This document shows, piece by piece, positions 45,249 to 61,634 of a stretch of 64,000 bases of DNA (position 1 is the stretch's first letter; every line of letters starts with the position of its first letter). The DNA is from Pseudophaeobacter arcticus DSM 23566 (GTDB lineage Bacteria > Pseudomonadota > Alphaproteobacteria > Rhodobacterales > Rhodobacteraceae): positions 1,841,945-1,905,944 of the forward strand of contig NZ_KI421507.1 in the NCBI RefSeq assembly GCF_000473205.1, in the 5' to 3' direction. Below the pieces are notes generated by a model. That model was given only the letters and a program-made list of their open reading frames with translations. It did no database searches and was not told where the DNA came from. A program made the translations under genes and the position numbers.

Positions 45249-45266
45249 TAGTTTACCGTTAAACTA
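45249..45266 (-). promoter_or_regulatory. Candidate operator of lpdA, shared with pdhA
   Basis: TAGTTTA-CCGT-TAAACTA on the plus strand; on the minus strand TTAGTTTAACGGTAAACTA. Perfect 7-bp arms, 31 bases upstream of the lpdA ATG. The pdhA leader has TTAGTTTAACACTAAACTA at the equivalent place. Two matching sites before functionally linked genes argue for one regulator. Confidence 0.7.
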
Positions 45267-45515
45267 ATTCCCAACGCACTGCAACAACCGAAGCCGTCCC
45301 GCCCTGAAACGGCACAAAAGCGCGTGCATAATTATCCCAAGACTAACAAGCAAAGACGACAGAACAACAGAAAAATCTCGCTGGAACATCTGGAGCCTTG
45401 GTTATCCTACGCCGCAACCAGCAGTTTCGGCTGATGATGATGCTTGCCGCGAAAATGTCGCGCCGATAGGCTGGCAGCTATCAGAGGTTTCAATTTCAAA
45501 CAGGAAATTTCGTTA

Positions 45516-45974
45516 ATGAGCCAAACACTTCAGCCACCTGAGGAACACGCCGTCCTATGCTGGCTGGCCACATCGGATGCCGACAACAGGCCCAATGTGT
45601 CCCCCAAGGAAATCTATGCCGAGCTGGACGCCGAGCGGCTGGTCATCGCCGATATCGCCTCTGCTCGCAGCGTGCGCAACATCCACGCCAACCCGGCGGT
45701 CTGTGTCAGCTTCGTCGACGTCTTTCTGCAGCGTGGTCACAAGGTTGAGGGCACCGCGAAAATCATCGCCCCTGATGCCACCGAATTTGCAGAGCTGGCG
45801 GCGCCCCTTCTGGCGATGACCGGAGAGGCCTTTCCTATCCGCAACGTGATCTTAGTGCACATTTCGCGCCGTTCGCCCATTTTGGCACCAAGCTACCTGT
45901 TCTACCCGGACCGCAGCGAGGCCGAGCTGCGCGCGGATGCATATGCCAGCTACGGCGTCGCCCCACGTAGCTGA
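45516..45974 (+). CDS. Pyridoxamine-5'-phosphate-oxidase-like flavin-binding protein
   Basis: A 152-residue split-barrel protein of the PNPOx-like superfamily. The N-terminal AVLCWLATSDADNRPNVSPK, then ERLVIADIASARSVRNIHAN and AVCVSFVDVF, follow the FMN-binding barrel pattern. It lacks the C-terminal dimerisation extension of true PdxH, so the role is not vitamin B6 synthesis; such proteins bind FMN, F420 or heme and often detoxify. I chose ATG 45516 (AGGAAA upstream). It stands alone. Confidence 0.75.
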   Translation: MSQTLQPPEEHAVLCWLATSDADNRPNVSPKEIYAELDAERLVIADIASARSVRNIHANPAVCVSFVDVFLQRGHKVEGTAKIIAPDATEFAELAAPLLAMTGEAFPIRNVILVHISRRSPILAPSYLFYPDRSEAELRADAYASYGVAPRS

Positions 45975-46055
45975 CCCCCCGTGCTGCCGACAAGACGGCA
46001 GGCAAGGCACAGCCTGTAGCAAGGCACCGCCTCTGCCCATAAGCCCTGCGGGCTG

Positions 46056-46634
46056 TTACCCAATGGCCCGCAGGCGGCGCAGCGTTTCGCCGTAGCCACC
46101 GGATTCGACATAGGTCTTCTCGGGTGCCGTGCTGTGGCGCGACAGCACGGCGTTGCGATAGGGAAAGCGGCCAAAATCGCGGATCACTTCACGGTGTGCA
46201 CGGGCATGGAACAGATTAACCGCGCCGGTTTCGGGCATCCGCTGCAGCATCAGCCGCACACAGCGCTCCTGATCGCACAGGTTCTCGGAATGCATCAGTG
46301 GCATGTAAAAGAACTGTCGGCCTGGCTCGTCGATCTTCATGTCCCATTTTTTCTGGATCGCGTTCTTGGCAGCACTGAGCGCCATACGGTCCGAGTGAAA
46401 GGCCTCGCCTGTTCCCCGGAACATGTTGCGCGGGAACTGGTCCATCAGAATGATATAGGCCAGAGTACCGGAGGGATAGGTCAGCCACAGGGAAAACTTG
46501 CCCTCACAGGCTGCCTTCCAAGTGTCCAGAAAACGCGTGCGGATGGTGTCATCCAGCGCGTCATCGCTGAGATACCAGCCTTTTTCTCCAACCTCATCCA
46601 GCCAGAACTTAAGGATTTCTTCGGGCCCCTGCAT
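46056..46634 (-). CDS. DUF924 family protein
   Basis: A 192-residue cytosolic, alpha-helical protein of the DUF924 family (TPR-like fold). Family motifs are seen: ILKFWLDEVGEKGWY at the N-terminus, IILMDQFPRNMFRGTGEAFH in the middle, and FFYMPLMHSENLCDQE, FGRFPYRNAVL toward the end. Function unknown. It lies on the strand opposite to the preceding PNPOx-like gene, convergent with it. Confidence 0.88.
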   Translation of the reverse strand: MQGPEEILKFWLDEVGEKGWYLSDDALDDTIRTRFLDTWKAACEGKFSLWLTYPSGTLAYIILMDQFPRNMFRGTGEAFHSDRMALSAAKNAIQKKWDMKIDEPGRQFFYMPLMHSENLCDQERCVRLMLQRMPETGAVNLFHARAHREVIRDFGRFPYRNAVLSRHSTAPEKTYVESGGYGETLRRLRAIG

Positions 46635-46773
46635 TGGTCCATCTCCACGTATTAATACCGAAGTTTAGTTCAGACCATTTTACATAGCGTTTACAAGTGA
46701 CGCGGGGTCACTATTTGCAACATTTTTGGCATTTCGATGAAATATTCCTCACAACCCCATTGGGTTAGCGCAA

Positions 46774-48048
46774 TCACCCGGCCTCACTGGCGGCTTCCTG
46801 CTCCTCAATCTCGGTTTCAATGGCATATTCCTGGGCAAATTCCACCACCACAGGCGAACCGCTGGGCGTCATTGGCGACATAATCCCGGTTTCGTCAGCG
46901 GGAATCGATGCCCGCTGGGTGGTACGATAGAGCGCGTAGACGGCCAGGGCGATCAGCAATACCGCCATGAACAGAAAATACCCCGAAGGACCAAAGACTG
47001 CATCGCTCATGATCCAGCCGGTGATCAGCGGACCGGCAATGGCGCCCAGCCCGTTGATAAACACCAGCCCGCCAGAGGCTGCCGCCATATCATCGTGCTC
47101 CAGATAGTCATTGGTATGGGCGATCAGCAGGGAATAGAGCGGGTTGGACATGCCGCCGATAAAGAAGGCCGCCAGCAACAAAAAGCTATAGTCCCCGCCC
47201 ATCACCATCCCCATGAGCGCAGCGCCGCCCCCCAGGGCAGAGACGGCCAGAACCAGAACCCGGCGATCCATCCAGTCTGACATCCAGCCCAGCGGAAACT
47301 GCAGGACAACCGCGCCAATGTAGAAGGTGGCAATAAAGATCGAGATCTGTGACAGGCTGAGCCCTGCCTCGGCGGCATAGACCGCGCTCATACCAAACTG
47401 AGCCGAAAACACCCCGCCCAGCAGAAACATGCCGACACAGCCAAGCGGCGAGACATTCATCAGCTCGCGCAGCGACATTGGCTTGGTGGTTGCAAAGGCC
47501 GGGGTGGGTGAAATCGACAGCAAAATTGGTGCAAAGGAGACCGAGACCACCACCGAGGCAATCACAAAGGTCTCATACCCTGCCGGATCCCCCACCAGCA
47601 TCAGCGCTTGCGCCGCCACGATGCCAATGGTCTGCACAATCATATAAAGCGACAGCGCCTTGCCCCGGTTGGCATTGTCGGCCGCGTTGTTCAGCCAGCT
47701 TTCTGCCGTGACATACACCCCTGAAAAGCAAAAGCCGATCAGCGCCCGTCCCAGCATCCATGCAATTGGATTGGCCACCGCAGGATAGAGAATCATTACC
47801 GCCGAGATCAGCGAGGCAAGCGCCGCAAAAACCCGCACATGGCCGACACGTCGGATCATCTCGGGCGCCAGGCGCGATCCGCCCAGAAATCCGACAAAAT
47901 AGGCCGACATCACAAAGGACATCTGCAGGGTCGAAAACCCCTCCAGCGCGCCCCGCACCCCCAAAATGGTGCCCTGCATGCCATTACCGATCATCAGCAT
48001 GCCCATGCCCAAGAGTAGCGCCCAAGCGCTCGACAAAACCTGCAGCAT
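46774..48048 (-). CDS. MFS transporter (YcaD-like)
   Basis: A 424-residue inner-membrane transporter with 12 hydrophobic helices. VMSAYFVGFLGGSRLAPEMI, then IRRVGHVRVFAALASL, is the loop 2-3 motif of this subfamily. A cytosolic acidic tail (EEQEAASEAG) ends the protein. I chose ATG 48048 because AAAGGAG lies 8 bases before it; an upstream TTG at 48075 is in frame. Substrate unknown; YcaD-type proteins are uncharacterised efflux-type carriers. It lies 182 bases downstream of queA. Confidence 0.82.
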   Translation of the reverse strand: MLQVLSSAWALLLGMGMLMIGNGMQGTILGVRGALEGFSTLQMSFVMSAYFVGFLGGSRLAPEMIRRVGHVRVFAALASLISAVMILYPAVANPIAWMLGRALIGFCFSGVYVTAESWLNNAADNANRGKALSLYMIVQTIGIVAAQALMLVGDPAGYETFVIASVVVSVSFAPILLSISPTPAFATTKPMSLRELMNVSPLGCVGMFLLGGVFSAQFGMSAVYAAEAGLSLSQISIFIATFYIGAVVLQFPLGWMSDWMDRRVLVLAVSALGGGAALMGMVMGGDYSFLLLAAFFIGGMSNPLYSLLIAHTNDYLEHDDMAAASGGLVFINGLGAIAGPLITGWIMSDAVFGPSGYFLFMAVLLIALAVYALYRTTQRASIPADETGIMSPMTPSGSPVVVEFAQEYAIETEIEEQEAASEAG

Positions 48049-48230
48049 CGCGATGGCTCCTTTGTCATCGGACAAGCGCCACTGTAACAGGTGTAACAGT
48101 GGCCCCTGCCCGTCTGGTGTTTTTGACGGGGGTGCCTCTGTCGCCAGAGGCAGGTGTCGGTTGAGATTGATTGCGAAGACGTCGTTTTCCGGCTCTCATC
48201 AGTGCGGAAATTACCCGCGCTTGTCTACCT

Positions 48231-49310
48231 TCATTTGCCGCCCTTCTGCCCCCTATTCGTCTCTTGGGGTAATAAAAGCGACCCGTCTCCATAAGAAAAG
48301 AAACGATAGCCGCTCTGTACCGCGTGATCATAAATCTCGCGCACCCGCTGTTGCCCCATGAGTGCAGAGATCAGCATCAACAGGGTGGATTTTGGCAGGT
48401 GAAAATTGGTCATCAAGGCATCGGCCACATGGAAGGTGAACCCAGGGTAGATAAAGATATCCGTCTCGCCCTCCCAGGGCTGCACAGTGCCGCTGCGCGC
48501 CGCGCTCTCAATCAGGCGCAGGGCCGTGGTGCCCACCGGAATGATCCGGCCACCGGCGGCTTTGGTTGCGGCGATATCCGCGGCGGCCTGTGGGCTGACC
48601 CGTCCCCATTCCGCATGCATTTTGTGGCTGGTCACATCTTCGACCTTGACCGGCAAAAAAGTTCCCGCGCCCACATGCAGGGTCACATAGGTGAACTCTA
48701 CCCCCCTGGCCTTGAGCGCGGCCAGCAGTGGCGGGTCAAAATGCAAAGAGGCCGTCGGCGCGGCAACCGCCCCGGAATGGCGCGCCCAAACGGTTTGGTA
48801 GTCTTCTTTGTCCTGATCATCTGCGGCCCGTTTGGCGGCAATATAGGGCGGCAGCGGCATGGCGCCCGCCGCGTTGAGCGCCGCATCAAAATCATCGCCA
48901 GCCAGGTTAAACCGCAACTGCCCCTGCCCGTCAGCCACGCCAACCAGCTCAGCCGACAGGGCCTCGGAAAACACCACGACCTCGCCAAGTTTGACCTTCT
49001 TCAAAGGCTTCAACAGGGCGGACCAGCTGCCATCTGCCTTCGGCTCTAACAGCGTCACTTCGATCTTGGCGGCCATTTTGCCCTGAGCGGTGTCGCGATG
49101 GCGCAGGCCAGAGAGCCGCGCCGGGATGACCTTGGTGTCATTCAACACCAGTCGATCTCCGGGCTGCAACAGGTCCACGAGATCGCCCATATGGCCATCC
49201 GTCAGGGAATCAGGTGTGGCCACCAGCAACCGCGCCGCGCTGCGCGGCGAGGCCGGGCGGGTGGCAATCAGGTCGTCGGGCAGGTCAAAATCAAAATCGC
49301 TGAGTTTCAT
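48231..49310 (-). CDS. queA: tRNA preQ1(34) S-adenosylmethionine ribosyltransferase-isomerase
   Basis: A 359-residue QueA. It transfers the ribosyl part of S-adenosylmethionine to preQ1 in tRNA to make epoxyqueuosine. Family motifs are present: [20 protein letters not shown] at the N-terminus, [36 protein letters not shown] and [20 protein letters not shown]. The length is normal. GGGGCGG precedes the ATG. Other queuosine genes are not in the window. Confidence 0.95.
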
Positions 49311-49387
49311 GCCGCCCCTTTAAGGGGTTTATCGCCGCTTGGCCATGGCTCTTGCAGGGGGCAGGTGTGACCAAGCCCCGGGCCTCC

Positions 49388-52300
49388 TCACCGCTCGCCG
49401 CCGGTGTTACTGTGCAGATGGGCGGGAGGCGGTTGTGTCTCTTCCTCCGGCGCACCTGGAACAGTGGGGGCCTTGCCGCGAAAAATCTCCCTGAACATGC
49501 CAGGAGCCAAGGCCGACAGGGGATTGACGCTGACCTTTGGATCATCCGCCGAGCCCCTGAGCCTGAAGGCAAAGCCAAACAACCCCTCCCCCTTGCGGGA
49601 AACCACCCGGCCAATGGCATTGATAATATAGATGGGCGAGATCACCCCGCGCATGTTCAGCGTGCCGGAGTCCAGTTCATAAATCCCGTCCATCGACAGC
49701 CCCATCGAAGGCCCGACAGCGCTGCTTTCATGCAGGGTCAGATGGGTAGAGCCAAGCCGGAATTTTGCCTCGACCCCGGTAAACAGAATGCCGCCACCGG
49801 ACAATTCATCCACCAGACCAATGACGCTGATCGCATTCAGCAGCGCCGCCATGGAGGGCGCATTTTTGATACGGGTGTTTTTGATCTGGATCTCACCGTC
49901 GTATTCACCCGGTTCCTTCGCCGGAATTAATGTCATGTCAAAGCTGCCGCCCTCACCATGACGCAAAATACCGGCGGCCTTAAAAACACCGCCCGCATCA
50001 TCGGCGCGGATCCGGGTGGCTATGCCCCCCGGTTTTGGCACCACAACCCCAGAGACCGGCGTGGCTCCATTGAGATTACCGGTGAACTGGCCATTTAGCC
50101 CGCCCTGTGTGGAGAACCGTCCCTCGAACCCGGTCAAGGCAATGCTTTCGGTGACACGCAGACGCTCCAGCTGCATGGTGATCGGGCCGGACGGAGCGCT
50201 GCCCCCAGAGCCATTCCCCGTGCTGCTGCCACTTTCACCAGAAAAGGGCGCCTTTTGCAGATCAAGCGTGCCGCTGGTCACCTGGATCTCCGCCAGCCCA
50301 TTGCGCAGGCCAATGAAATTCACAGCGCCCTGCATCCAATTGCCAACACTCACCGCGCTCAGATGGGCCTGCTGCAACCCGCCGCTCTCCTTGGTGGTCA
50401 CCCAGCCCTCAGCCTGCAACCCCGGCGCCTGCAGCCGCAGCCTGTCGACCTTGACCGGCGTGGCCAGGGTGACATCCATATCCAGCTGACCGCGGCTCGC
50501 CGGGGGTTTGCGCCAACTGATCTGCGGGATGCGCAGATCCACCCCTGCCAGATCGGATGTAAACTGCAACTGCGGTGGCTGCTCTGGCACGATATCCAGC
50601 TGATAGCTCCCCTGCCCCTGGCCAGCGACAGTGCCCTTGGGCAGGCCAATTTGCAGGGTGTCTATGGCCTTTGGGCTGATCTCGATCTCGCCGGTCACCC
50701 GACTGGCCGGGCTGGCCTGCCGCCCCACGGCCTGGCTCCAGTTGGCAGTTACGGGGATACCCGACAGGCTGCCTGCACCTGACAGCGCCACCCGCCCCTG
50801 ATCACCGCGCAGCGCCAGTACCGGCGCTGCGACCACGTGGTTGGGAACCAAAGTGGCGCTCCGCACCTCGCTGACGGTGCCCCGGTAGTGATACTTGATA
50901 TCTTCGGGAGCCACCTGGGGCTTTAGCGGCAGCGCCAAAGTGCCAACCACATGCACCCGCCCCTGGGCCAGATCAACAGGCAGATGTGCCTTGTCCAGAA
51001 TGGAAAGCGGCGGGCGATTGAGCAGCGACAGCCCCGCCGTGACAGATCCCTCCGCCACCACCCGAGCAATCCCCGGCGCGCCATCGCGCACCGAGGTATC
51101 CGGAATAATAAAGGAGGTCCCGGCGACCTGCACCGCGCCGCCCTCATCGGCGGTCACCGTTCCCGCAGCAGCAACAACAACCATCCTTGTATTGTAGAGA
51201 CTAAAATGACCGGCACCGCCCGTCACCCGTGGCATGTGTTTTTGGAATTTGACTTCGGCGTTGGTGAAATTGGCATCCAACGCATAAAACGGCTTTGCCC
51301 GCCCCTTGCCGCGCAGGGCAAAATTCACGTCCTGGGCCTGGGCCTGAAAGACGTTTTGCAACACCCACTGGCGTGGTTTTTCCGCCGCCCCGGTCGGCCA
51401 CAGCGATTTCACTTGCGCCAGATCCAGGTGGTCAGAGCGCGCATCCAGGGCATATTCCCAGCCCTCGGGGCCGGTTTCAAACTTGCCGTTCAAACGGATT
51501 TGACGGCCCTCATGCTCGACCAGCATCTCGCCAAGCTGAAAGCGGAAGGGATTGGGCTGCAGGCGAAAATCAACCGTCACACCGGCAAAGACCTGCGGTT
51601 GCGAATACAGCCCGCGCGGATTGAGGGTGAGATCGGTGAACCGCAATTGCCCCACCAGATCGGTCAAACGGCCATCTGAGATCCCTGCCAGCTCAGCACT
51701 GCCCTCCATGGTGCCCGAGCCCCAGCCGCTGTTGATCTTCAGCTCATCAAACTGCAGGCGCTGCTCCAGCGGCAAGAAGGTGAAATAGCTATGGGCGCCG
51801 TGAATGGGGATTGGCAGGGTTTCCGGCGAGGGCTGGATCACCCCTTCGCCAATTTGCAGGCTTGCCGACAGCGGCAACAAAGTGCCCTCGCTGGTGATCC
51901 CGCCGCGTAAAGATCCCGAAATAGAGGCGCGCAGCACCTGCAACCAGCCAAGAGCCGGCGCCTGCACCGCAATGTCTTCGCTGGCGATATCGCTGACCAG
52001 TATCCCAAATTCTGCTGCGGAATCGCCAATATCGGATTTGTAGCTCGCCTCAACCGCGCCCACATCCTGACGCCCGCTCAGCACCGAAAAGCCCGAGGAA
52101 ATGGTCAAGGCCTGGTCCTGCCGGGTAAAGCGCACATTGCCCCCATCCAGGATCCAGACCCGGCCAAGCCGCGCGTCTTCATAGCGCAGGGTCACCCCAT
52201 TGGTGGAAATCTCGGTCAAAGAAGACAGCACCGGCAATTCAAACTGACTGTCCCATTGCTCGATCAGCTGCGGCAGATTGGCCGCCTGGCGCAGCGGCGA

Positions 52301-52738
52301 GCCCCCCTGGGAGAGGCTAAGCGCGATACTATCGGATTCGCGACGCAGACTGGCATATAGCCCACTGAGCGAAATCCGCTTGGGCTGTATCTTGCCCCGC
52401 AGCAAGGGCCGCATTGCCATGGAAATTTCGGCATCAGCCAGTTGCACAATCGGCGTTCCATCTGCTGCGCGCAGGGTGACATCGCGCATCCCGATCCGCG
52501 GTCTCCAACCGTGATTGACCACAAAGTTGAGATCGCCAAACTCAAGCTGCAGCCCATTCAAATCCCGCTCGATGCGGGTCTCCAGACGCTGACGCAACCA
52601 CTGGGGCGCATCCATTTTGGTGCCGATACCAAAATAGACCACCCCGGCCCCCAGAAAGCACAACAAGGCCAGCAACCGGATGGTCCAGCGCAGGGCACGC
52701 AGAGACCGGCGCCGGCGCCGTTGCGCGGGCCGCCCCAC
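49388..52738 (-). CDS. Large AsmA/YhdP-like (DUF3971) membrane-anchored protein
   Basis: A protein of about 1116 residues. It has an Arg-rich N-terminus and one membrane helix (LLALLCFLGAGVVYFGIGT), then a huge beta-rich periplasmic part. It ends with an AsmA-like C-terminal domain (LVDELSGGGILFTGVEAKFR, TLNMRGVISPIYIINAIGRV) and a proline-rich tail. The YhdP/TamB group bridges inner and outer membranes in lipid transport. The start is unsure: GTG at 52738 is the first standard start, but coding character continues upstream (EDLVARQVDELVGRPA) to a stop next to AAAGGA, where only CTG could initiate. Confidence 0.82.
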   Translation of the reverse strand: MGRPAQRRRRRSLRALRWTIRLLALLCFLGAGVVYFGIGTKMDAPQWLRQRLETRIERDLNGLQLEFGDLNFVVNHGWRPRIGMRDVTLRAADGTPIVQLADAEISMAMRPLLRGKIQPKRISLSGLYASLRRESDSIALSLSQGGSPLRQAANLPQLIEQWDSQFELPVLSSLTEISTNGVTLRYEDARLGRVWILDGGNVRFTRQDQALTISSGFSVLSGRQDVGAVEASYKSDIGDSAAEFGILVSDIASEDIAVQAPALGWLQVLRASISGSLRGGITSEGTLLPLSASLQIGEGVIQPSPETLPIPIHGAHSYFTFLPLEQRLQFDELKINSGWGSGTMEGSAELAGISDGRLTDLVGQLRFTDLTLNPRGLYSQPQVFAGVTVDFRLQPNPFRFQLGEMLVEHEGRQIRLNGKFETGPEGWEYALDARSDHLDLAQVKSLWPTGAAEKPRQWVLQNVFQAQAQDVNFALRGKGRAKPFYALDANFTNAEVKFQKHMPRVTGGAGHFSLYNTRMVVVAAAGTVTADEGGAVQVAGTSFIIPDTSVRDGAPGIARVVAEGSVTAGLSLLNRPPLSILDKAHLPVDLAQGRVHVVGTLALPLKPQVAPEDIKYHYRGTVSEVRSATLVPNHVVAAPVLALRGDQGRVALSGAGSLSGIPVTANWSQAVGRQASPASRVTGEIEISPKAIDTLQIGLPKGTVAGQGQGSYQLDIVPEQPPQLQFTSDLAGVDLRIPQISWRKPPASRGQLDMDVTLATPVKVDRLRLQAPGLQAEGWVTTKESGGLQQAHLSAVSVGNWMQGAVNFIGLRNGLAEIQVTSGTLDLQKAPFSGESGSSTGNGSGGSAPSGPITMQLERLRVTESIALTGFEGRFSTQGGLNGQFTGNLNGATPVSGVVVPKPGGIATRIRADDAGGVFKAAGILRHGEGGSFDMTLIPAKEPGEYDGEIQIKNTRIKNAPSMAALLNAISVIGLVDELSGGGILFTGVEAKFRLGSTHLTLHESSAVGPSMGLSMDGIYELDSGTLNMRGVISPIYIINAIGRVVSRKGEGLFGFAFRLRGSADDPKVSVNPLSALAPGMFREIFRGKAPTVPGAPEEETQPPPAHLHSNTGGER

Positions 52739-52911
52739 AAGCTCATCGACTTGACGCGCGACGAGATCCTCATTTTCCCCAACTGGTTCGATCAGTGTTT
52801 ATCCTTTGGCCACGATGGCCTAACTATATCAGACAGCCCTTGCCAAACAGTTCGAGTTCAAACCATTTGGAGCCAACCGTTTGCGACCCACAGGTTCAGG
52901 AGACCACATAA

Positions 52912-53373
52912 ATGCTCGATGCAACTGATCAGGCCCCTCTGTTTTGCCTGCCCCGTGATGGCGGCGGTGAAGTCTCTCTTGCAGAGCTGAAAGGCCAAGC
53001 CGTTGTTCTGTTTTTCTATCCCCGCGATGATACCCCGGGCTGCACCAAAGAATCCATCGGGTTTTCTGCCCATCTGCAAGGCTTTGCCGATGCTGGCGCC
53101 TTGGTTTTTGGAATTTCCAAGGACACGGTGTCAAAGCACGATAAATTCATCGCAAAACACGAGCTGACCACGCCGCTATTGTCCGATGCCGAGGGCAGCA
53201 CCTGTGAAGATTACGGGGTCTGGAAAGAGAAGAACTTGTACGGCAAAAAGCACTGGGGGATTGAGCGTTCGACCTTCTTGATCGACGCTGAAGGCCGCAT
53301 TGCCCGTATCTGGCGCCGGGTCAAGGTTCCCGGCCATGTGGAAGAGGTGCTGGAGGCGGCCCAGTCACTCTAA
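52912..53373 (+). CDS. bcp: Thiol peroxidase / bacterioferritin comigratory protein (peroxiredoxin)
   Basis: A 153-residue AhpC/TSA-type peroxiredoxin. FYPRDDTPGCTKESIGFSAH holds the peroxidatic Cys in the conserved TPGCT motif. The resolving Cys found five residues later in E. coli Bcp is absent (Ile here), so it probably works as a 1-Cys type or uses another Cys (the one in STCEDYG). It reduces hydroperoxides in the cytosol. It diverges from the AsmA-like gene. Confidence 0.93.
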   Translation: MLDATDQAPLFCLPRDGGGEVSLAELKGQAVVLFFYPRDDTPGCTKESIGFSAHLQGFADAGALVFGISKDTVSKHDKFIAKHELTTPLLSDAEGSTCEDYGVWKEKNLYGKKHWGIERSTFLIDAEGRIARIWRRVKVPGHVEEVLEAAQSL

Positions 53374-53580
53374 CCCTGTCTCTCTAGCCCAGTCTCTACA
53401 GCTCTGGCCCATTAGCCTGCGTCTGGAACCTCTGGGTCTGGAACGTCTGGATCTGGGGTTGGCTCTTGTTCTGTGCGGGCTTTGGCGGGGCGCAAGCCTG
53501 CACTAAGCGCCTGTGAGGCCCCGCTGCGCAGCCCTGGTAGGTGCCCTGCTTTTTTGCCCTTTGTCTTTTTAGGAACTCAT

Positions 53581-54420
53581 ATGACCGCTCCCCTCACCCT
53601 CGCACAGATGGCCAATGACGTGTTGACCACCGCTGATGGCGCGGCAAAGGCCGCCCTGTCGCGCCGCCATGCCGCCGCTTGGTTTGCCGCCCGCGAACAG
53701 GACCCCTGTGCAATCGAGATTGGCACCGCCAATCCGCCACTGCACCCGGCCCGCCCGGACAAACCTGAATTGCTCAATCCGCGCGATGTGCCAAAGCGCA
53801 AGCCCGGTTCCGAGGCAGGCCGCATCGCCCTGTTGCATGCGGTTGCCCATATCGAGCTCAACGCGGTGGACCTGCACTGGGATATCATAGCGCGCTTTTC
53901 CCATGTGCCCCTGCCGATTGGCTTCTTTGATGACTGGGTCAAGGCCGCTGATGAGGAATCCAAACATTTTGGCCTGATGTGCGAGTGTCTGGAAAGCCTT
54001 GGCAGTTTCTACGGCGCCCTGCCGGCCCACCGGGGAATGTGGCAGGCCGCCGAAGATACCGCAGAGGATCTGATGGGGCGCCTGGCCGTGGTGCCGATGG
54101 TACTGGAGGCCCGTGGGCTTGATGTAACCCCAGGCATGATAAAGATTTTCCGCCAGGCAAAGCTCACCCAGGCGGTGGAGGCCCTGGAGGTGATCTATTC
54201 AGAAGAGGTCAGCCATGTGGCCTATGGATCCAAGTGGTTCTACTTCCTGTGTGGCCGTGACAATCTGGATCCCAAAGAGGTCTTTCATACCCTGGTCAGG
54301 AAATACTTTCGCAGCTCCCTAAAGCCGCCTTTCAATGAGGAAAAACGTGCCGACGCGGGTATTCCGCCAGATTTCTACTGGCCATTGGCTGACCAGATCA
54401 AACCGATTGCCGGGGTTTGA
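53581..54420 (+). CDS. DUF455 ferritin-like protein
   Basis: A 279-residue helical protein of the DUF455 family. Candidate di-iron ligands lie in HIELNAVDLHWDIIARF, DEESKHFGLMCECLESLG and SEEVSHVAYGSKWF, the Glu/His pattern of ferritin-like diiron proteins. The start at 53581 (MTAPLTLAQM) follows AGGAA. Its substrate is unknown; the family is widespread and uncharacterised. Confidence 0.85.
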   Translation: MTAPLTLAQMANDVLTTADGAAKAALSRRHAAAWFAAREQDPCAIEIGTANPPLHPARPDKPELLNPRDVPKRKPGSEAGRIALLHAVAHIELNAVDLHWDIIARFSHVPLPIGFFDDWVKAADEESKHFGLMCECLESLGSFYGALPAHRGMWQAAEDTAEDLMGRLAVVPMVLEARGLDVTPGMIKIFRQAKLTQAVEALEVIYSEEVSHVAYGSKWFYFLCGRDNLDPKEVFHTLVRKYFRSSLKPPFNEEKRADAGIPPDFYWPLADQIKPIAGV

Positions 54421-54727
54421 CCTCGCCAATCAACAACAGGATGCGACCACCACCATCCTTGATCAGCTATTGGCAGGTTTCCGAATGCCCTGGCAGGACA
54501 GGCACAGGGAGGGGCCACGGGGCAAACACTGGGGCGAACACTGGCTTTGCTACTGGCAACATTTCGCCCAAATACGCCTCCCACCGGAGCAAACCGAAGA
54601 GGGCACACCAAAAAAACCGCCTTCACACTTGCCCACAGGCTGCCGCATGGCTAAAGATTTCGCGCAGAGTTCAGCAGCTGGGGATGGCGGCGGCTCTGCG
54701 ATATAGGGATGGGACAAGGATCGGCTC
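54421..54727. other. Intergenic region before the M23 peptidase gene; nothing recognised
   Basis: About 300 bases without a supported gene. Short frames have no recognised similarity. The M23 promoter probably lies in the last 100 bases. Confidence 0.3.
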
Positions 54728-56059
54728 GTGCGGACACGTCTGGCTATCAGGATACATGCATTTCTGGAACACTACTTTCCAGAACGCCGGGTCTTTTTAA
54801 AATCCGATACAGATACCCGTTTTGTCCGGCTGAGGTCGGGCACACAGCTGATCGCCGTCACCGGGATGGTCGCCTTTGTTGCCTGGGCCATTGTCGCCAC
54901 GGCGATTGTCTTGATGGATAGCATCGGCTCCGGGAACTTTCGCGAACAGGCCAAGCGGGATCAGCTCACCTATCGCGCCCGGCTCAACGACATCTCAAAC
55001 GAACGGGACACCCGCGCCGAAGAGGCTTTGGCGGCTCAGCAGCGGTTCAACGCCGCCCTGGCGCAGATTTCGATGATGCAGTCCGAATTGCTCACCTCCG
55101 AGACCCGGCGCCAGGAGCTGGAAACCGGCATCGAAGTCATCCAGACAACCCTGCGCCAGACCATGACCCAGCGTGACGGCACCCGCGCCGAACTGGAAGA
55201 GCTGCGGCAAAACACCAAGGCAGATTGGGACACCCCCATGGCTGCGGCAGCTGCGCCCTTGCAGATGGATTTTCTCTCTACTGCGCTGTCGGAAACGGCG
55301 ACCGAACGCGACCAGATCGAAACCGATGCCCAGGAAGCCCTGGAACAGCGCGCCGAAATGGAGCTGGAACTGGAGCTGCTCAACGAGCGCAACGACCAGA
55401 TTTTCCGTCAACTCGAAGAGGCGGTCGCCGTATCGGTGGCGCCGCTGGACAAGATGTTTAGAAATGCCGGCATGCCGCCAGATCGTATTCTGGAGCAGGT
55501 GCGGCGCGGATATAGCGGTCAGGGCGGTCCGCTCAGCCCTTTAGCCCTATCCACCCGCGGTGAGGAACCCTCCGCGGATGAGCTGCGCGCCAACCAGATT
55601 CTCAATCAGTTGGACCAGTTGAACCTCTACCGGATGGCAGCGCAGCAGGCGCCTTTTGCAACCCCGGTTAATCTGAATCTGGTGCGTCAGTCTTCGGGCT
55701 ATGGCTACCGGCGCGACCCCAAAACCGGCGGCCGCCGCCTGCACAAAGGGTCTGATTTTGCCGGCAGTACCGGCACCGATATCTTTGCCACGGCCGATGG
55801 CATCGTCACCCATGCCGGCTGGCAATCCGGTTATGGCAAACTTGTTACCATTCAGCATGCCTTTGGGATTGAGACGAAATACGCTCATAACTCAAATCTG
55901 CGCGTTAAGGTGGGCCAAAGGGTCTCGCGCGGGGATCACATTGCTGATATGGGTACGACCGGACGGTCCACCGGAACCCACCTCCACTATGAGGTAAGGG
56001 TTAATGGCAAACCCGTAAACCCGATGATCTATATCAAGGCTGCAAGAAATGTTTTCTAA
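54728..56059 (+). CDS. M23-family peptidoglycan endopeptidase with coiled coil
   Basis: A 443-residue membrane-anchored cell-wall hydrolase. A single membrane helix (IAVTGMVAFVAWAIVATAIV, about residues 38-57) is followed by long coiled coils to about residue 240. A LytM/M23 domain follows, with zinc ligands in RRLHKGSDFAG (HxxxD) and HLHYEVRVNGKPVNP (HxH). All catalytic residues are present, so it is likely an active DD-endopeptidase. The start is GTG with AAGGA upstream. Its stop overlaps the bactofilin start, which points to a joint role in cell shape. Confidence 0.9.
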   Translation: MRTRLAIRIHAFLEHYFPERRVFLKSDTDTRFVRLRSGTQLIAVTGMVAFVAWAIVATAIVLMDSIGSGNFREQAKRDQLTYRARLNDISNERDTRAEEALAAQQRFNAALAQISMMQSELLTSETRRQELETGIEVIQTTLRQTMTQRDGTRAELEELRQNTKADWDTPMAAAAAPLQMDFLSTALSETATERDQIETDAQEALEQRAEMELELELLNERNDQIFRQLEEAVAVSVAPLDKMFRNAGMPPDRILEQVRRGYSGQGGPLSPLALSTRGEEPSADELRANQILNQLDQLNLYRMAAQQAPFATPVNLNLVRQSSGYGYRRDPKTGGRRLHKGSDFAGSTGTDIFATADGIVTHAGWQSGYGKLVTIQHAFGIETKYAHNSNLRVKVGQRVSRGDHIADMGTTGRSTGTHLHYEVRVNGKPVNPMIYIKAARNVF

Positions 56060-56597
56060 AAGCAAAATCAACGAGCCCGGACCTAAACAGGCCGAGGCAA
56101 CCCCTACAGCGGCTCCGGCGGCCTCATCCGCACCTGCTGCATCTGCCAGCGAATACAAGCCCTCTGCCCCAAAGGCAAAGCCGCCCGCATCGCTGCTGAG
56201 CTCGGATCTGCACATCACCGGCAATCTGAAAACCTCAGGTGACATCCAGGTCGAAGGCACCGTCGAAGGTGATATTCGCGCCCACCTGCTGACCGTTGGC
56301 GAAACCGCCACCATCAAAGGCGAAGTGATTGCTGATGATGTTGTCGTCAATGGCCGTGTTGTGGGCCGGGTACGTGGCCTCAAGGTGCGTCTCACCGCCA
56401 CCGCCCGTGTCGAAGGCGACATCATCCATAAAACCATCGCGATTGAGAGCGGCGCCCATTTTGAAGGCTCGGTCCAGCGTCAGGATGACCCACTGACCCC
56501 TGGTGGCAAAAAAGCCATGCCGGCAGCTGCGGCCTCTGCCCCTGCCCCCTCGGCAGCCGTCAAAGCGGCAACAGCCGCTGCCAAGGCCGACAGCTAA
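56049..56597 (+). CDS. Bactofilin (polymer-forming cytoskeletal protein)
   Basis: A 182-residue protein. An Ala/Pro-rich disordered N-terminus leads into the bactofilin beta-helix: LHITGNLKTSGDIQVEGTVE, then TATIKGEVIADDVVVNGRVV, GRVRGLKVRLTATARVEGDI, and HFEGSVQRQ. An Ala-rich tail follows. Bactofilins polymerise under the membrane and direct wall enzymes. The start lies inside the M23 gene (11-base overlap), so the two are translationally coupled, as in other alphaproteobacterial bactofilin/M23 pairs. Confidence 0.95.
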   Translation: MFSKSKINEPGPKQAEATPTAAPAASSAPAASASEYKPSAPKAKPPASLLSSDLHITGNLKTSGDIQVEGTVEGDIRAHLLTVGETATIKGEVIADDVVVNGRVVGRVRGLKVRLTATARVEGDIIHKTIAIESGAHFEGSVQRQDDPLTPGGKKAMPAAAASAPAPSAAVKAATAAAKADS

Positions 56598-56646
56598 CCT
56601 ATCGCCGCCCCGTGCTTTGCCCCCTCGGGACAGAGCAGAGAAATTG

Positions 56647-56682
56647 AACCCGTCGCAGATCGGCTCTGCGGCGGGTTTCTTT
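56647..56682 (+). terminator. Intrinsic terminator of the M23-bactofilin operon
   Basis: AACCCGTCGCAGA-TCGGC-TCTGCGGCGGGTT, a 13-bp stem with one G:T pair, followed directly by TCTTTTT. Confidence 0.85.
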
Positions 56683-56851
56683 TTGCACTATCCGCCCGCT
56701 CGACAACCGGAGGAAAGTTGCACCTGCAGATCGGGTTACCAAGCTGAAAATCCCCCCTCCCCCTCTGCGTGGTGAAGGAATTTTGCTTTCACTGCTCAAC
56801 CTTTGGGAGTACCCTCCGGCAGGTATTTTATGACGTAGTCTGGAGAGAACC

Positions 56852-57382
56852 ATGCCGGTTATTCTTGGTGCAATTGCCGTTTTGGCAGCCGCGTTTTTTT
56901 GGATCCAACGGGCCCGCAATGCGGCGCAGATGGGCCACGATCTGGTGGATGTCGCCAATGACATCCGTCTGGCCGCACGTAGATTTGGCTTTCAGCGCCG
57001 CAGCAATATCCACCCTGCCGAGACCATCGAGGACCCGCAGATTGCCTTGGCGGCCCTCGGGGTCAGCTTTCTGGAGCTTGACGATTATCCGACCGCTGAA
57101 CAAAAAGAAGCCCTGATCCGTGGTCTGCGCGAAGAGTTGAGGATCCCACATCAGGATGCCGAAGAGCTGGTTCTGCTTGGGCGCTGGATCATGACAGAGT
57201 GCGGCGGCCCGCAGCAGGCGATTTCACGGCTGTCACGTCGGCTCTACAAGCTGAGCGCACAGAGCCATTTCAACGTGCTTGTCAGCCTCATTCAGGGCAT
57301 CGCAAAATTTGGCAGCGGCAGCCTGACACAGCCGCAAAAAACCGCGCTGGAGGATGTCCAGCGCGGTTTGAGGATCAGCTAG
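56852..57382 (+). CDS. Hypothetical N-terminally anchored helical protein
   Basis: A 176-residue protein. An N-terminal hydrophobic helix (PVILGAIAVLAAAFFWIQRA) is followed by an all-helical domain with a TerB-like spread (ETIEDPQIALAALGVSFLEL, EALIRGLREELRIPHQDAEE, ISRLSRRLYKLSAQSHFNVL). It probably sits on the cytosolic face of the inner membrane. No enzyme motif is visible; the TerB likeness is weak. Confidence 0.7.
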   Translation: MPVILGAIAVLAAAFFWIQRARNAAQMGHDLVDVANDIRLAARRFGFQRRSNIHPAETIEDPQIALAALGVSFLELDDYPTAEQKEALIRGLREELRIPHQDAEELVLLGRWIMTECGGPQQAISRLSRRLYKLSAQSHFNVLVSLIQGIAKFGSGSLTQPQKTALEDVQRGLRIS

Positions 57383-57390
57383 AAACTGAC

Positions 57391-57419
57391 GGCTCCCCGG
57401 TGAATATTACCGGGGAGCC
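57391..57419. terminator. Bidirectional hairpin between convergent genes
   Basis: GGCTCCCCGGT-GAATATT-ACCGGGGAGCC, a perfect 11-bp stem between the anchored helical protein and the cyclophilin gene. No U-run on either side, yet the position fits a shared terminator. Confidence 0.6.
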
Positions 57420-57425
57420 AAGACC

Positions 57426-57971
57426 TTACTCAGTGACGGTCACTTTGCTCATCATGTCGGGTTTGCCCACAACAGAACCATTGCCGCCGGTGCCCAATTT
57501 GATCGCATCCACCACATCCATGCCTTCGGTGACCTGTCCAACAACGGTGTATTGCCCGTTGAGGAAATGACCCGGCTTGAACATGATGAAGAACTGCGAA
57601 TTGGCGCTATTGGGGTTTTGTGAGCGCGCCATGCCAACGATGCCGCGATCAAAGGGGCGATCCGAAAACTCGGCAGGCAGATCGGCCAGATCAGAACCGC
57701 CCATGCCGGCGCGGCTCATGTCGCCACCCATTTTGCCATACTGAACATCGCCAGTCTGCGCCATGAAGCCATCAATCACGCGGTGGAACACCACCCCGTC
57801 ATATTTGCCCTCGGCTGCCAGCGCGGTGATCTGAGCCACATGTTTGGGGGCCAGATCCTCAAACAGGTCGATCTTGACGGTGCCATTGGCCTCGCCCTCG
57901 ATCTGGATTTCCAGCCCTGCCGCCAGCGTCGAGCTGGCCAGAAGGGAAAATACCGCTGCCAGCTTAAACAT
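57426..57971 (-). CDS. Periplasmic cyclophilin-type peptidyl-prolyl isomerase
   Basis: A 181-residue cyclophilin with a signal peptide (MFKLAAVFSLLASSTLAAG). The fold motifs are VFHRVIDGFMAQTGDVQYGK with the catalytic Arg and the Phe-Met-Gln stretch, then GIVGMARSQNPNSANSQFFI. It catalyses proline isomerisation in the periplasm. It overlaps the preceding cyclophilin gene by 8 bases, so the two are one operon and probably arose by duplication. Confidence 0.92.
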   Translation of the reverse strand: MFKLAAVFSLLASSTLAAGLEIQIEGEANGTVKIDLFEDLAPKHVAQITALAAEGKYDGVVFHRVIDGFMAQTGDVQYGKMGGDMSRAGMGGSDLADLPAEFSDRPFDRGIVGMARSQNPNSANSQFFIMFKPGHFLNGQYTVVGQVTEGMDVVDAIKLGTGGNGSVVGKPDMMSKVTVTE

Positions 57972-58473
57972 CTGCGGCCACCTTGACGCTGATCATGCGA
58001 TCGGGATTTGCGGGGGGCTCGCCTTTGACGATGGCGTCAACGTGTTCCATGCCTTCAATCACCCGACCATAGACGGTGTATTGATTGTTGAGGAAGTGGT
58101 TGTCCTTGAAATTGATGAAGAACTGCGAGTTGGCCGAATCCGGGCTGGCGGAACGGGCCGCGCCCAGGGTGCCGCGGTCATGTGGCAGGCTGGAAAACTC
58201 AGCAGGCAGGTTTGGCAGCGACGAGCCACCAGTGCCAGCCATGCGGATGTTAAAGCCGTCTTCCATATCGCCATTGGCGACATCGCCGGTCTGCGCCATA
58301 AAACCGTCGATAACCCGGTGGAAGCAGACGTTGTCATACTCACCCGCGCGCGCCAGTTCCTTCATGCGCTCGGCATGTTTGGGGGCCACATCCGCCAGCA
58401 ATTCGATGACAACATTGCCATCTTTCAGCTCAATAATGACGGTGTTTTCTGGATCTTTGATATCGGCCATGAG
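57964..58473 (-). CDS. Cytosolic cyclophilin-type peptidyl-prolyl isomerase
   Basis: A 169-residue cyclophilin without signal peptide. The motifs are VCFHRVIDGFMAQTGDVANG and GTLGAARSASPDSANSQFFI. I chose ATG 58473 (MADIKDPENTVI) with GGAGG upstream; a longer frame from 58530 has no support. It is the cytosolic partner of the next, exported paralogue. It diverges from pgk. Confidence 0.93.
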   Translation of the reverse strand, partial: LMADIKDPENTVIIELKDGNVVIELLADVAPKHAERMKELARAGEYDNVCFHRVIDGFMAQTGDVANGDMEDGFNIRMAGTGGSSLPNLPAEFSSLPHDRGTLGAARSASPDSANSQFFINFKDNHFLNNQYTVYGRVIEGMEHVDAIVKGEPPANPDRMISVKVAADV

Positions 58474-58607
58474 GCCCTCCTGTCTGCAAAATTTGCAACG
58501 ATAGTTAAGGGTAGCGCTCGCAATTGCCAAGGGAGCATTGACTGATGGCCAAAAAGCGCTGAAAGAACAGCGTGATTACCCGCGATATTTGCACAGAGGA
58601 GCCTCTG

Positions 58608-59798
58608 ATGGGCTGGAAAACACTCGACGATATGGATCTGAACGGTAAACGCGTCCTGGTGCGCGTGGACATCAACGTCCCTCTTGTTGACGGCGTGGTG
58701 ACCGATTCCACCCGAATCCGCCGCATTGCTCCAACCGTGCGGGACATTCTGGCGGCCGGTGGTCGGCCGATCCTGCTGGCGCATTTTGGCCGCCCCGGCG
58801 GTGAGCGGCGCGAAAACCTGTCGCTGAAGCAGCTGGTCCCCACCCTGGAGCGCGCCTTTGAAACCACTGTGCGGTTTGCGGCCGATTGCGTTGGCGAAGG
58901 CGCCAAGGAGGCCGCAAGCGCGCTGCAGCCTGGCGAAGTGCTGCTGTTGGAAAACACCCGGTTCCACGCGACTGAAACCAAAAACGACCCCGAACTGGCC
59001 GCCGCCATGGCAGAGCTGGGCGATGTCTATTGCAACGATGCCTTTTCCGCAGCGCATCGCGCCCATAGCTCCACCGAGGCCCTGGCGCGGCTGCTGCCCG
59101 CCTGTGCAGGCCGCCTGATGCAGGCAGAACTCCAGGCGCTGGAAAGCGCCCTGGGGGCGCCAAACCGCCCGGTGACAGCGGTTGTCGGCGGCGCCAAGGT
59201 GTCGACCAAGCTGGAGCTGCTGGGCAATCTGGTGGAAAAGGTCGATTATCTGATCATTGGTGGTGGCATGGCCAATACCTTTCTTGTGGCCAAAGGCCTG
59301 TCCGTGGGCATTTCACTGGCCGAGCGGCTGATGAAAGACACCGCAGCGCAGATTATGGCGAAGGCCGAGAAGACCGGCTGCAAGATCATCCTGCCCAGCG
59401 ACATTGTGGTTGCTGAAAAGTTTGAATCGCACGCTCCGCACCAGATCCTGCCGGTGGATCAATGTCCGGACAACGGCATGATCCTGGATGCGGGCCCCGA
59501 GAGCCTGAAGGTGATCAATGAGACCTTTGAACAGAGCAAAACCCTGATCTGGAACGGTCCGCTTGGCGCCTTTGAATTTGAGCCCTTTGATGCCGCCACC
59601 AATGCCGCAGCTCTCAAAGCCGCCGCGCTGGTCCGTGCAGGCCTGCTGACAGCCGTTGCAGGCGGTGGCGATACCGTCGCCGCGCTGAATGCCTCAGGCG
59701 CGGCGGGGGATTTCACCTATATCTCCACGGCGGGCGGAGCCTTTCTGGAATGGATGGAAGGCAAAACTCTCCCCGGTGTTGCCGCGCTGGAAAGCTGA
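58608..59798 (+). CDS. pgk: Phosphoglycerate kinase
   Basis: A 396-residue glycolytic/gluconeogenic kinase. The signature [16 protein letters not shown] is near the N-terminus. The 3-phosphoglycerate site has [15 protein letters not shown]. The nucleotide site includes [29 protein letters not shown] and [16 protein letters not shown]. The length is normal. ATG 58608 has GAGG upstream; an in-frame GTG at 58572 is less likely. A terminator follows at 59853-59889. Confidence 0.96.
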
Positions 59799-59852
59799 GG
59801 CCTGCAGCTTCGGGCCCCGCAACGCCTGATCAAAGCAAGCTCCCCCCAACTG

Positions 59853-59889
59853 ACCGCCGATCCGGAATTTCTCTGGGTCGGCGGTTTTT
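59853..59889 (+). terminator. Intrinsic terminator of pgk
   Basis: ACCGCCGATCC, an 11-base loop, GGGTCGGCGGT (one T:G pair), then TTTTG. It lies about 55 bases past the pgk stop. Confidence 0.8.
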
Positions 59890-60071
59890 GTCTTGCGGCT
59901 ATCCCCTTGGTCTTTGGCTGAAAATATTAACAAACCCTTAATGGTAAAAATTCTATCCCCTTGGAGTCAAAAGGGGATTCACAAAGCGAATCGCTTGTGC
60001 CATAACAAAGACAGAGGCCGGAACAACTGGCCCAACAGCAGACTTGAGCAGTAAACATACAGGCACTTCCA

Positions 60072-60371
60072 TTGACCCGAAGCCACAAGCCTTCCTTAGG
60101 TTCTTTTACCTTTTTTGTCGTCGCATTTGCGCTGGGCGCATATTTTACCTTTGCGGCGGTGCAGGGTGATTTTGGGTTGTTCAGAAGAGTCGAGATCCAG
60201 GCCGAAGCCGATGAGCTTCGCCTGGATCTTGATCGTCTGACCCTGGAAATTGCCGCGATCGAAAACCTCACCCATCGCCTGTCGGATGACTATCTGGACC
60301 TGGACCTGCTGGATGAGCAGGCGCGCTCGGTGCTGGGCCTGCTGCGTGCAGACGAAATCGTCATCCAATAA
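60072..60371 (+). CDS. FtsB/DivIC-like septum formation initiator
   Basis: A 99-residue single-pass membrane protein. A short basic N-terminus and membrane helix (GSFTFFVVAFALGAYFTFAA) are followed by a coiled coil (EIQAEADELRLDLDRLTLEI) and a short conserved C-terminus (DLDLLDEQARSVLGLLRADE). That is the FtsB/DivIC layout, a divisome component that contacts FtsL and FtsQ. The start is TTG. It lies between pgk and pdhA, as in other Rhodobacteraceae. Confidence 0.85.
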   Translation: MTRSHKPSLGSFTFFVVAFALGAYFTFAAVQGDFGLFRRVEIQAEADELRLDLDRLTLEIAAIENLTHRLSDDYLDLDLLDEQARSVLGLLRADEIVIQ

Positions 60372-60583
60372 ACGCTTTTTGCACCCCTCCTGTGGCACAG
60401 CGGACTGATCTGGCTGTTGAACAGGTTTGACCATCATGCAACCATACGGAAAATGCTCTGCGGCGGCAGGCCATTTGGCGTGGCTCTTGGGTCCGCGTCG
60501 GGGTTTTTGCTGTGTCTTTTCTGCGGTGAAATAACCCGAGGTCACAAAAGGTCTCGCCAGCCAGGTCAAATTCAACTATTAAT

Positions 60584-60601
60584 TAGTTTAACACTAAACT
60601 A
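60584..60601 (+). promoter_or_regulatory. Candidate operator of pdhABC, shared with lpdA
   Basis: TAGTTTA-ACAC-TAAACTA, perfect 7-bp arms, 27 bases before the pdhA ATG. Nineteen-base match TTAGTTTAACNNTAAACTA with the lpdA site. The position near the start suits repression. Confidence 0.7.
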
Positions 60602-61618: not shown

Positions 61619-61634
61619 GGGGAAGAGAAGAGAT

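What the first reader, a model, noticed from the sequence alone, without database searches (positions are those of the whole stretch)
45249..60601. Same palindromic operator in front of lpdA and pdhABC
TTAGTTTAAC-NN-TAAACTA occurs at 45249-45266 (31 bases before lpdA) and 60584-60601 (27 bases before pdhA), each with perfect TAGTTTA/TAAACTA arms. I noticed no other copy in the window. E3 and E1/E2 of one complex are split over two loci yet carry one site, which predicts a shared repressor of pyruvate dehydrogenase whose identity is not evident here.
Basis: partly seen in the sequence, partly recalled or inferred. Interest (0 to 1): 0.7.

Follow-up and report, generated by a model that had tools for sequence, protein, structure and literature searches.

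The report
MarR-family switch for pyruvate dehydrogenase
A short mirror-image DNA site sits just before the pyruvate dehydrogenase and malic enzyme genes in many genera of one bacterial family, and comparison of genomes points to one small MarR-type protein, apparently unstudied, as the regulator that reads it.

Summary
TAGTTTA-N4-TAAACTA lies exactly at 45249-45266 (31 bp before lpdA) and 60584-60601 (27 bp before pdhA). The genome holds one more copy at <=1 mismatch, 21 bp before maeB (malic enzyme), outside the window. The site occurs in 88 of 120 Rhodobacteraceae genera sampled. Of 107 sites I placed, 92 precede pdhA, lpdA or maeB; two more precede aceE and lipA. So this is a small, conserved pyruvate-to-acetyl-CoA regulon.

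The likely reader is a 146-aa MarR-family protein at G000:C6:3780997-3781434. Its ortholog is in 86 of 88 site-bearing genomes, but strong in only 15 (weak in 2) of 32 without sites. Outside the family, 3 of 4 exact sites precede an operon with a MarR gene. A sister MarR with another recognition helix has another operator. Site position suggests repression; the effector is unknown and nothing is bench-tested.

The parts
45249..45266 (.). Operator of lpdA: TAGTTTA-ACGG-TAAACTA read on the - strand, 31 bp before the lpdA ATG
   Evidence: same place before lpdA in 25 distinct sites including this one
45256..45261 (-). -10-like TAACGG inside the operator (inferred)
   Evidence: 17 bp downstream of the -35-like hexamer; read by eye
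45279..45284 (-). -35-like TTGCAG before lpdA (inferred)
   Evidence: same offset at which 12 of 25 lpdA upstream regions have TTGA
43823..45217 (-). lpdA, dihydrolipoyl dehydrogenase (E3)
   Evidence: ORF; TIGR01350 over cut-off
60584..60601 (.). Operator of the pdhA operon: TAGTTTA-ACAC-TAAACTA, 27 bp before the pdhA ATG
   Evidence: same place before pdhA in 38 distinct sites including this one
60553..60558 (+). -35-like CTCGCC (inferred)
   Evidence: CTCGC at this offset in 13 of 38 pdhA upstream regions
60577..60582 (+). -10-like TATTAA touching the operator (inferred)
   Evidence: TA at this offset in 26 of 38 pdhA upstream regions; by eye
60629..61618 (+). pdhA, pyruvate dehydrogenase E1 alpha
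   Evidence: ORF; TIGR03182 over cut-off
61635..63002 (+). pdhB, E1 beta with an N-terminal lipoyl-like domain, next gene of the operon (start chosen by eye within ORF 61560-63002)
   Evidence: ORF; name by eye, not searched in a family library

Best explanation
TAGTTTA-N4-TAAACTA is the operator of a small regulon, the malate -> pyruvate -> acetyl-CoA route: maeB, the pdhA operon and lpdA; in single relatives also aceE and lipA. It is read by a MarR-family winged-helix regulator, in this genome the 146-aa protein at G000:C6:3780997-3781434, encoded between a carbon-nitrogen hydrolase gene and ubiG. SUPPORTED by comparison: the operator, its targets, its conservation, its co-occurrence with the MarR gene, and the joint change of recognition helix and operator in a sister MarR. 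INFERRED: that a dimer of this protein binds the site and represses by covering the core promoter (spacer and -10 at lpdA, -10 and start region at pdhA), and lets go on binding a small molecule. GUESSED: the effector comes from the pyruvate/acetyl-CoA node, so that the route closes when acetyl-CoA is plentiful or opens on pyruvate or malate.
For: Three genome-wide sites, all before genes of one route. Site in 88 of 120 genera. 92 of 107 placed sites before pdhA (38), lpdA (25) or maeB (29). MarR ortholog at E<=2e-45 in 86 of 88 site-bearing genomes; in 32 site-less genomes strong in 15, weak in 2, absent in 15; Fisher 4e-10, or 1e-8 with the weak ones counted as present. In site-less genomes whose pdhA upstream could be read, a degenerate site (<=4 mismatches within 200 bp) in 13 of 14 with a strong MarR, 0 of 1 weak, 0 of 6 without. 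Three of four exact sites outside the family precede an operon with a MarR gene. Helix and operator change together in the sister MarR. Operator overlaps promoter-like elements at different offsets at pdhA and lpdA, which suits a repressor better than an activator.
Against: No binding or expression data. No site at <=3 mismatches in the 3.3 kb around the own MarR gene, so no sign of autoregulation. G106 and G054 have sites at <=1 mismatch but no ortholog at 1e-15 (G106 is in 590 contigs; the two sites of G054 have atypical centres and lie away from the three genes). G019 has a strong MarR but no site at <=4 mismatches before pdhA; nor has G092, with a weak MarR. No fixed promoter element was seen before maeB. 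The profile is not corrected for relatedness beyond one genome per genus label. The two hits in G099 and G109 carry one in-frame stop as the tool reads them and were counted as present. 13 of 107 placed sites are before none of the five genes. A cceR mutant of P. denitrificans has less MaeB (PMC11323563, passages), which could be read as CceR acting at maeB.
Confidence: 0.78

Rival explanations
1. The sites belong to the LacI-family global regulator CceR (also GapR; RSP_1663 in R. sphaeroides), which would accept a wider-spaced palindrome at pdh, lpd and mae.
For: [quoted passage not shown] our site is AGTT-N8-AACT. MaeB falls in a P. denitrificans cceR mutant. The own genome has two CceR-like LacI proteins. 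CpG is the commonest centre, 48 of 87.
Against: Strong CceR orthologs (E<=1e-149) are in 9 of 15 genomes that lack both the MarR and any site at <=1 mismatch; in two of these, G043 and G100, the pdhA upstream is readable and has no site at <=4 mismatches. The centre is not CpG in 39 of 87 core sites; a central CpG in LacI-family operators is recalled. No TGTTANCGNTAACA-like site (<=3 mismatches; motif recalled) in the 300 bp before the own lpdA, pdhA or maeB. The words 'pyruvate dehydrogenase', 'pdh' and 'malic' do not occur in the main text of the 2014 GapR reconstruction (PMC4052901; its figures are not held).
Confidence: 0.1
2. Another regulator with a similar distribution, for example another MarR paralog, reads the site; the ortholog found here only travels with it.
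For: The own genome has at least five weaker MarR relatives of the G317 protein (E 3e-9 to 4e-3), and only one candidate was profiled.
Against: The candidate was found through out-of-family operons carrying the same site, not by screening for co-occurrence, and then fitted the profile. Its helix matches the operator class.
Confidence: 0.08
3. The same protein binds the same sites but acts as an activator, or as both.
For: Direction of control was not measured.
Against: Sites overlap promoter-like elements and lie 15 to 53 bp before most start codons, at differing offsets to the putative -10.
Confidence: 0.12
4. The repeats are chance palindromes.
For: Some sites in AT-rich genomes look like chance: the backwards control pattern totals 56 in 120 genomes against 203 real sites, and G054 has 5 control against 2 real matches.
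Against: 0 of 100 shuffles and the same three genes throughout.
Confidence: 0.01

Closest known systems
PdhR regulon of gammaproteobacteria (GntR family)
   Same: A pyruvate-node regulator controlling the pyruvate dehydrogenase genes (PMC5343134, passages)
   Different: PdhR is a GntR protein; the protein here is MarR by Pfam and gave no GntR hit. Malic enzyme is a constant target here; E3 and E1/E2 are at separate loci
CceR / GapR regulon of Rhodobacteraceae (LacI family; RSP_1663)
   Same: Same bacterial family, central carbon genes, a GTT...AAC palindrome; the same target genes were once predicted for it (PMC4344238)
   Different: Spacer N8 instead of N6, no strict central CpG, and site presence follows the MarR gene rather than cceR
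MarR-family repressors such as FabT, HpaR, SlyA, MarR
   Same: Same Pfam domains (MarR_2, MarR); weak NCBIfam hits to these models
   Different: All NCBIfam hits are far below their curated cut-offs (best 28.5 against 230 bits); database names are generic, once HpaR in the 120 listed; best solved relative 8ylf at E 5e-9
Sister MarR linked to an Acg-type flavin oxidoreductase gene in the same bacterial family
   Same: 37-43% identity, 18-bp palindromic sites with outer TRGT...ACYA, sites just before the regulated operon
   Different: Recognition helix PK[TN][ST]M[ST]H instead of T[RK]GAMTN and inner operator bases NCGA...TCGN instead of TTA...TAA; tandem sites in front of its own operon

Membership tests
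MarR family | MarR winged-helix domain | tested here: met
   PF12802 43.5 bits (cut-off 27), PF01047 30.4 (cut-off 24.6)
MarR family | Palindromic operator overlapping the promoter | tested here: met
   Palindrome met; overlap with promoter-like elements is by eye
MarR family | Control of own or neighbouring genes (common, not universal; recalled) | tested here: inconclusive
   Not met in the own genome (no site at <=3 mismatches in L100); met in G243, G317 and G258
MarR family | Dimer that releases DNA on ligand binding | not testable with these tools
   Structure jobs were not accepted, machine busy; no ligand data
PdhR (GntR) | GntR-type DNA-binding domain in the regulator | tested here: not met
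   Pfam hits are MarR_2, MarR and HTH_34 only
CceR/GapR (LacI) regulon | N6 palindrome at the target promoters | tested here: not met
   No TGTTANCGNTAACA-like site at <=3 mismatches within 300 bp of the three own genes; motif recalled
CceR/GapR (LacI) regulon | Site presence follows cceR presence | tested here: not met
   cceR strong in 9 of 15 MarR-minus, site-less genomes; pdhA upstream readable in two of these nine, no site
CceR/GapR (LacI) regulon | Direct CceR binding at pdhA, lpdA or maeB | not tested
   Primary ChIP paper not held

The most novel reading that the evidence does not exclude
In place of a PdhR-type regulator, Rhodobacteraceae use an unrelated MarR protein that senses a metabolite of the acetyl-CoA node and throttles the whole malate-pyruvate-acetyl-CoA route. 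A sister of this MarR, tied to an Acg-type flavin oxidoreductase, kept the 18-bp operator layout but changed recognition helix and inner operator bases together, so that the two circuits do not cross-talk.
Probability: 0.45. Interest if true: 0.62.

Novelty: new member of a known kind. Interest (0 to 1): 0.5.

Why it matters
Pyruvate dehydrogenase is the gate between C3 and C2 metabolism, and many Rhodobacteraceae are abundant marine heterotrophs (recalled). A dedicated regulator for that gate is now named and can be tested with one deletion and one gel shift. It would correct or refine a published prediction that gave these genes to CceR. The MarR pair with matched helix and operator changes is a ready-made natural experiment on how paralogous regulators become insulated from each other.

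Tried and rejected
A literature search by sequence words listed 40 of 1,214 papers; by title none concerned this site. Topic searches listed no paper that by title or abstract start describes a MarR regulator of pyruvate dehydrogenase in this family; this covers only the held open-access library and capped listings. All papers were seen as passages only (PMC5343134, PMC4344238, PMC12632250, PMC12542648, PMC11323563, PMC5507952, PMC4419725, PMC4052901). The primary CceR paper (mBio 2015) is not held, and the supplementary cluster tables of PMC4344238 were not read, so that its N8 cluster is our site set is my inference. Of the 3-mismatch sites in the own genome only L002 was examined (inside a coding frame); L003-L012 were fetched but not examined. 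A fold model of the MarR protein was not obtained, so no pocket-based effector guess is offered. Whether genomes without PdhA use AceE was not tested. G078 was left out of the pdhA upstream count because its PdhA match starts at a contig end and the script read a wrong stretch there.

The 13 placed sites before none of the five genes: L022 (a threonine/serine dehydratase-like gene, G083), L043, L054, L073, L082, L172 and two in G054 (L175, L182), L189 (between an acetyl-CoA C-acetyltransferase gene and an acetoacetyl-CoA reductase gene, upstream of the latter, G113), L190 (between convergent genes), L195, L197 (inside deoB), L198. I treat them as unproven or chance.
Full report
CHECK. One hundred shuffled windows give none. 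The whole genome (G000, 5.05 Mb, 6 contigs) holds three sites at <=1 mismatch. The third, C6:1150976-1150993, lies 21 bp before a gene for a malic enzyme-phosphotransacetylase fusion, maeB (L001). All three genes act on one short route: malate to pyruvate to acetyl-CoA.

CONSERVATION. In 120 Rhodobacteraceae genomes, each with a different genus label, 88 have at least one site at <=1 mismatch; the totals are 203 real sites and 56 for the pattern read backwards (summed). The list of places was cut, so not all were placed. I placed 70 from 32 genomes: 65 lie before pdhA, lpdA or maeB. I then placed all 30 sites of eight more genomes: six chosen for four or five sites, G054 (no MarR) and G139 (two exact sites); 20 of the 30 lie before the three genes. 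Seven genomes have four or more sites, and all seven have the complete trio. Four more pdhA sites came from the class scan. With the own three this makes 92 of 107 (38 pdhA, 25 lpdA, 29 maeB); 103 of the 107 belong to the 203. Two others fit the theme: a perfect site before aceE, homodimeric PDH E1, in G139 (L095), and a 1-mismatch site before lipA, lipoyl synthase, in G074 (L184) (the aceE score is below cut-off, on a frame cut by the end of the locus). Thirteen sites are elsewhere.

SHAPE. From 87 distinct core sites the consensus is TAGTTTA-(A/G)YRY-(T/C)AAACTA, written towards the gene, with A/T-rich flanks. The central step is pyrimidine-purine in 79 of 87 and CpG in 48. At their best fixed offsets, pdhA upstream regions have TA at -7 (26 of 38) and CTCGC at -31 (13 of 38), which suggests a -10 touching the site; lpdA regions have TTGA at -18 (12 of 25), which would put the -10 inside the site. 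The promoter reading is by eye. No fixed element was seen before maeB.

A scan of 386 Alphaproteobacterial genomes for exact TAGTTTARNNYTAAACTA found ten with a match. Six are the six Rhodobacteraceae in the sample, the own genome included. The other four (of 380) are G243, G258, G260 and G317, in four other families. In G243 and G317 two neighbouring sites, one exact and one with a mismatch, precede an Acg-family flavin oxidoreductase gene followed by a MarR-family gene. In G258 one site precedes a short-chain dehydrogenase-like gene (by eye) followed by another MarR gene. In G260 the site precedes a salicylyl-CoA hydroxylase gene; no MarR gene was seen by eye in the 6.5 kb fetched. The G317 MarR finds one clear relative in the own genome (49% identity, E 4.7e-30; next 3e-9): 146 aa, between a carbon-nitrogen hydrolase gene and ubiG.

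PROFILE TEST. The own MarR protein was searched in all 120 genomes. It is present at E <= 2e-45 in 86 of 88 site-bearing genomes. Of 32 site-less genomes it is strong in 15, weak in 2 (G092 47%, G112 43%) and absent at 1e-15 in 15. Fisher p is 4e-10, or 1e-8 counting the weak ones as present. The exceptions are G106 (590 contigs) and G054 (two sites with atypical centres, away from the three genes). PdhA (E <= 1e-110) is missing from 10 of the 32 site-less genomes, and 8 of these 10 also lack the MarR. Of the 22 with PdhA, 21 have a readable upstream: within 200 bp a degenerate site (<=4 mismatches, mostly 2-3) is present in 13 of 14 with a strong MarR, 0 of 1 with a weak one, 0 of 6 without (G078 excluded). 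The hydrolase gene (E <= 1e-30) was found in 12 of 15 MarR-minus genomes; in four of them (G061, G078, G087, G100) it faces a ubiG-like gene with no MarR between, which argues against an assembly gap there. In the five MarR-bearing genomes compared, the MarR follows the hydrolase gene, with ubiG facing it in three.

SPECIFICITY SWAP. Twelve of the 80 genomes carry a second MarR (37-43% identity) directly behind an Acg-type oxidoreductase gene; ten more weaker hits were not looked at. The helix reads PK[TN][ST]M[ST]H in 11 of the 12 (AKTTMTH in L165) instead of T[RK]GAMTN. The 11 operons with enough upstream sequence have palindromes of the same 18-bp layout but other inner bases, TRGTNCGANNTCGNACYA: best match 0-3 mismatches, against 5-8 for TAGTTTANNNNTAAACTA. 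The two out-of-family operons with TKGAMTN show the reverse (4-5 against 0), as do the three own promoters (4-5 against 0-1). The second motif was derived by eye from the same loci, so this is descriptive, but helix and operator differ together. A quick tree puts the out-of-family proteins nearer the oxidoreductase-linked ones, which would make TAGTTTA the older operator; support is modest.

MECHANISM. Most likely a MarR dimer sits on the palindrome over the core promoter and blocks it, and a small molecule releases it. In G243 one site lies between TTGACA and TATATT and the second follows 3 bp on (read by eye), a repressor layout. The effector is unknown. The targets share the making of acetyl-CoA from malate and pyruvate, so a signal from that node is the natural guess.

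WHAT IS KNOWN. PdhR is a GntR protein (PMC5343134, passages). For R. sphaeroides a 2015 network study predicted that RSP_1663 controls malic enzyme and RSP_2968-RSP_4047-RSP_4050 via [A/G/T]GTT-N6-8-AAC[A/C/T] in two spacer clusters (PMC4344238, passages). The N8 form includes our site, so the gene set was probably glimpsed before, under another regulator. The 2014 reconstruction of the same protein's regulon (GapR) does not use the words pyruvate dehydrogenase, pdh or malic in its main text (PMC4052901). In P. denitrificans a cceR mutant has less MaeB (PMC11323563, passages), which may be indirect. My tests speak against CceR at these sites. No curated NCBIfam model reaches its cut-off for the MarR protein; database names among the 120 listed relatives are generic, once HpaR.

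VERDICT. A real, conserved, compact regulon with a strongly indicated but unproven MarR reader: a new regulon and probably a new role for a member of a well-known family, not a new kind of system.

Noticed in passing
L158-L166, L168, L169, upstream of Acg-type oxidoreductase genes: A sister MarR sits behind an Acg-type flavin oxidoreductase gene; its operon carries palindromes of the form TRGTNCGANNTCGNACYA, often two in tandem.
   Followed up: partly
G016, G042, G049, G061, G065, G087, G093, G114 (genome handles): Eight Rhodobacteraceae genomes lack both the PdhA-type E1 and the MarR, hinting that enzyme type and regulator are lost or replaced together.
   Followed up: no
L098:2950-2967: In G258, of another family, a TAGTTTA-type site precedes a short-chain dehydrogenase-like gene followed by a different MarR gene with helix VTNGNATG.
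   Followed up: no
L197:1623-1640: In G108 a 1-mismatch site with a typical centre lies inside deoB, about 2.8 kb from the maeB site; chance or an auxiliary operator.
   Followed up: no
L083, L084 (own genome): The own genome has just two LacI-family proteins over the Pfam cut-off, both CceR-like (55% identical); one is divergent from a gene that looks like glyceraldehyde-3-phosphate dehydrogenase.
   Followed up: no
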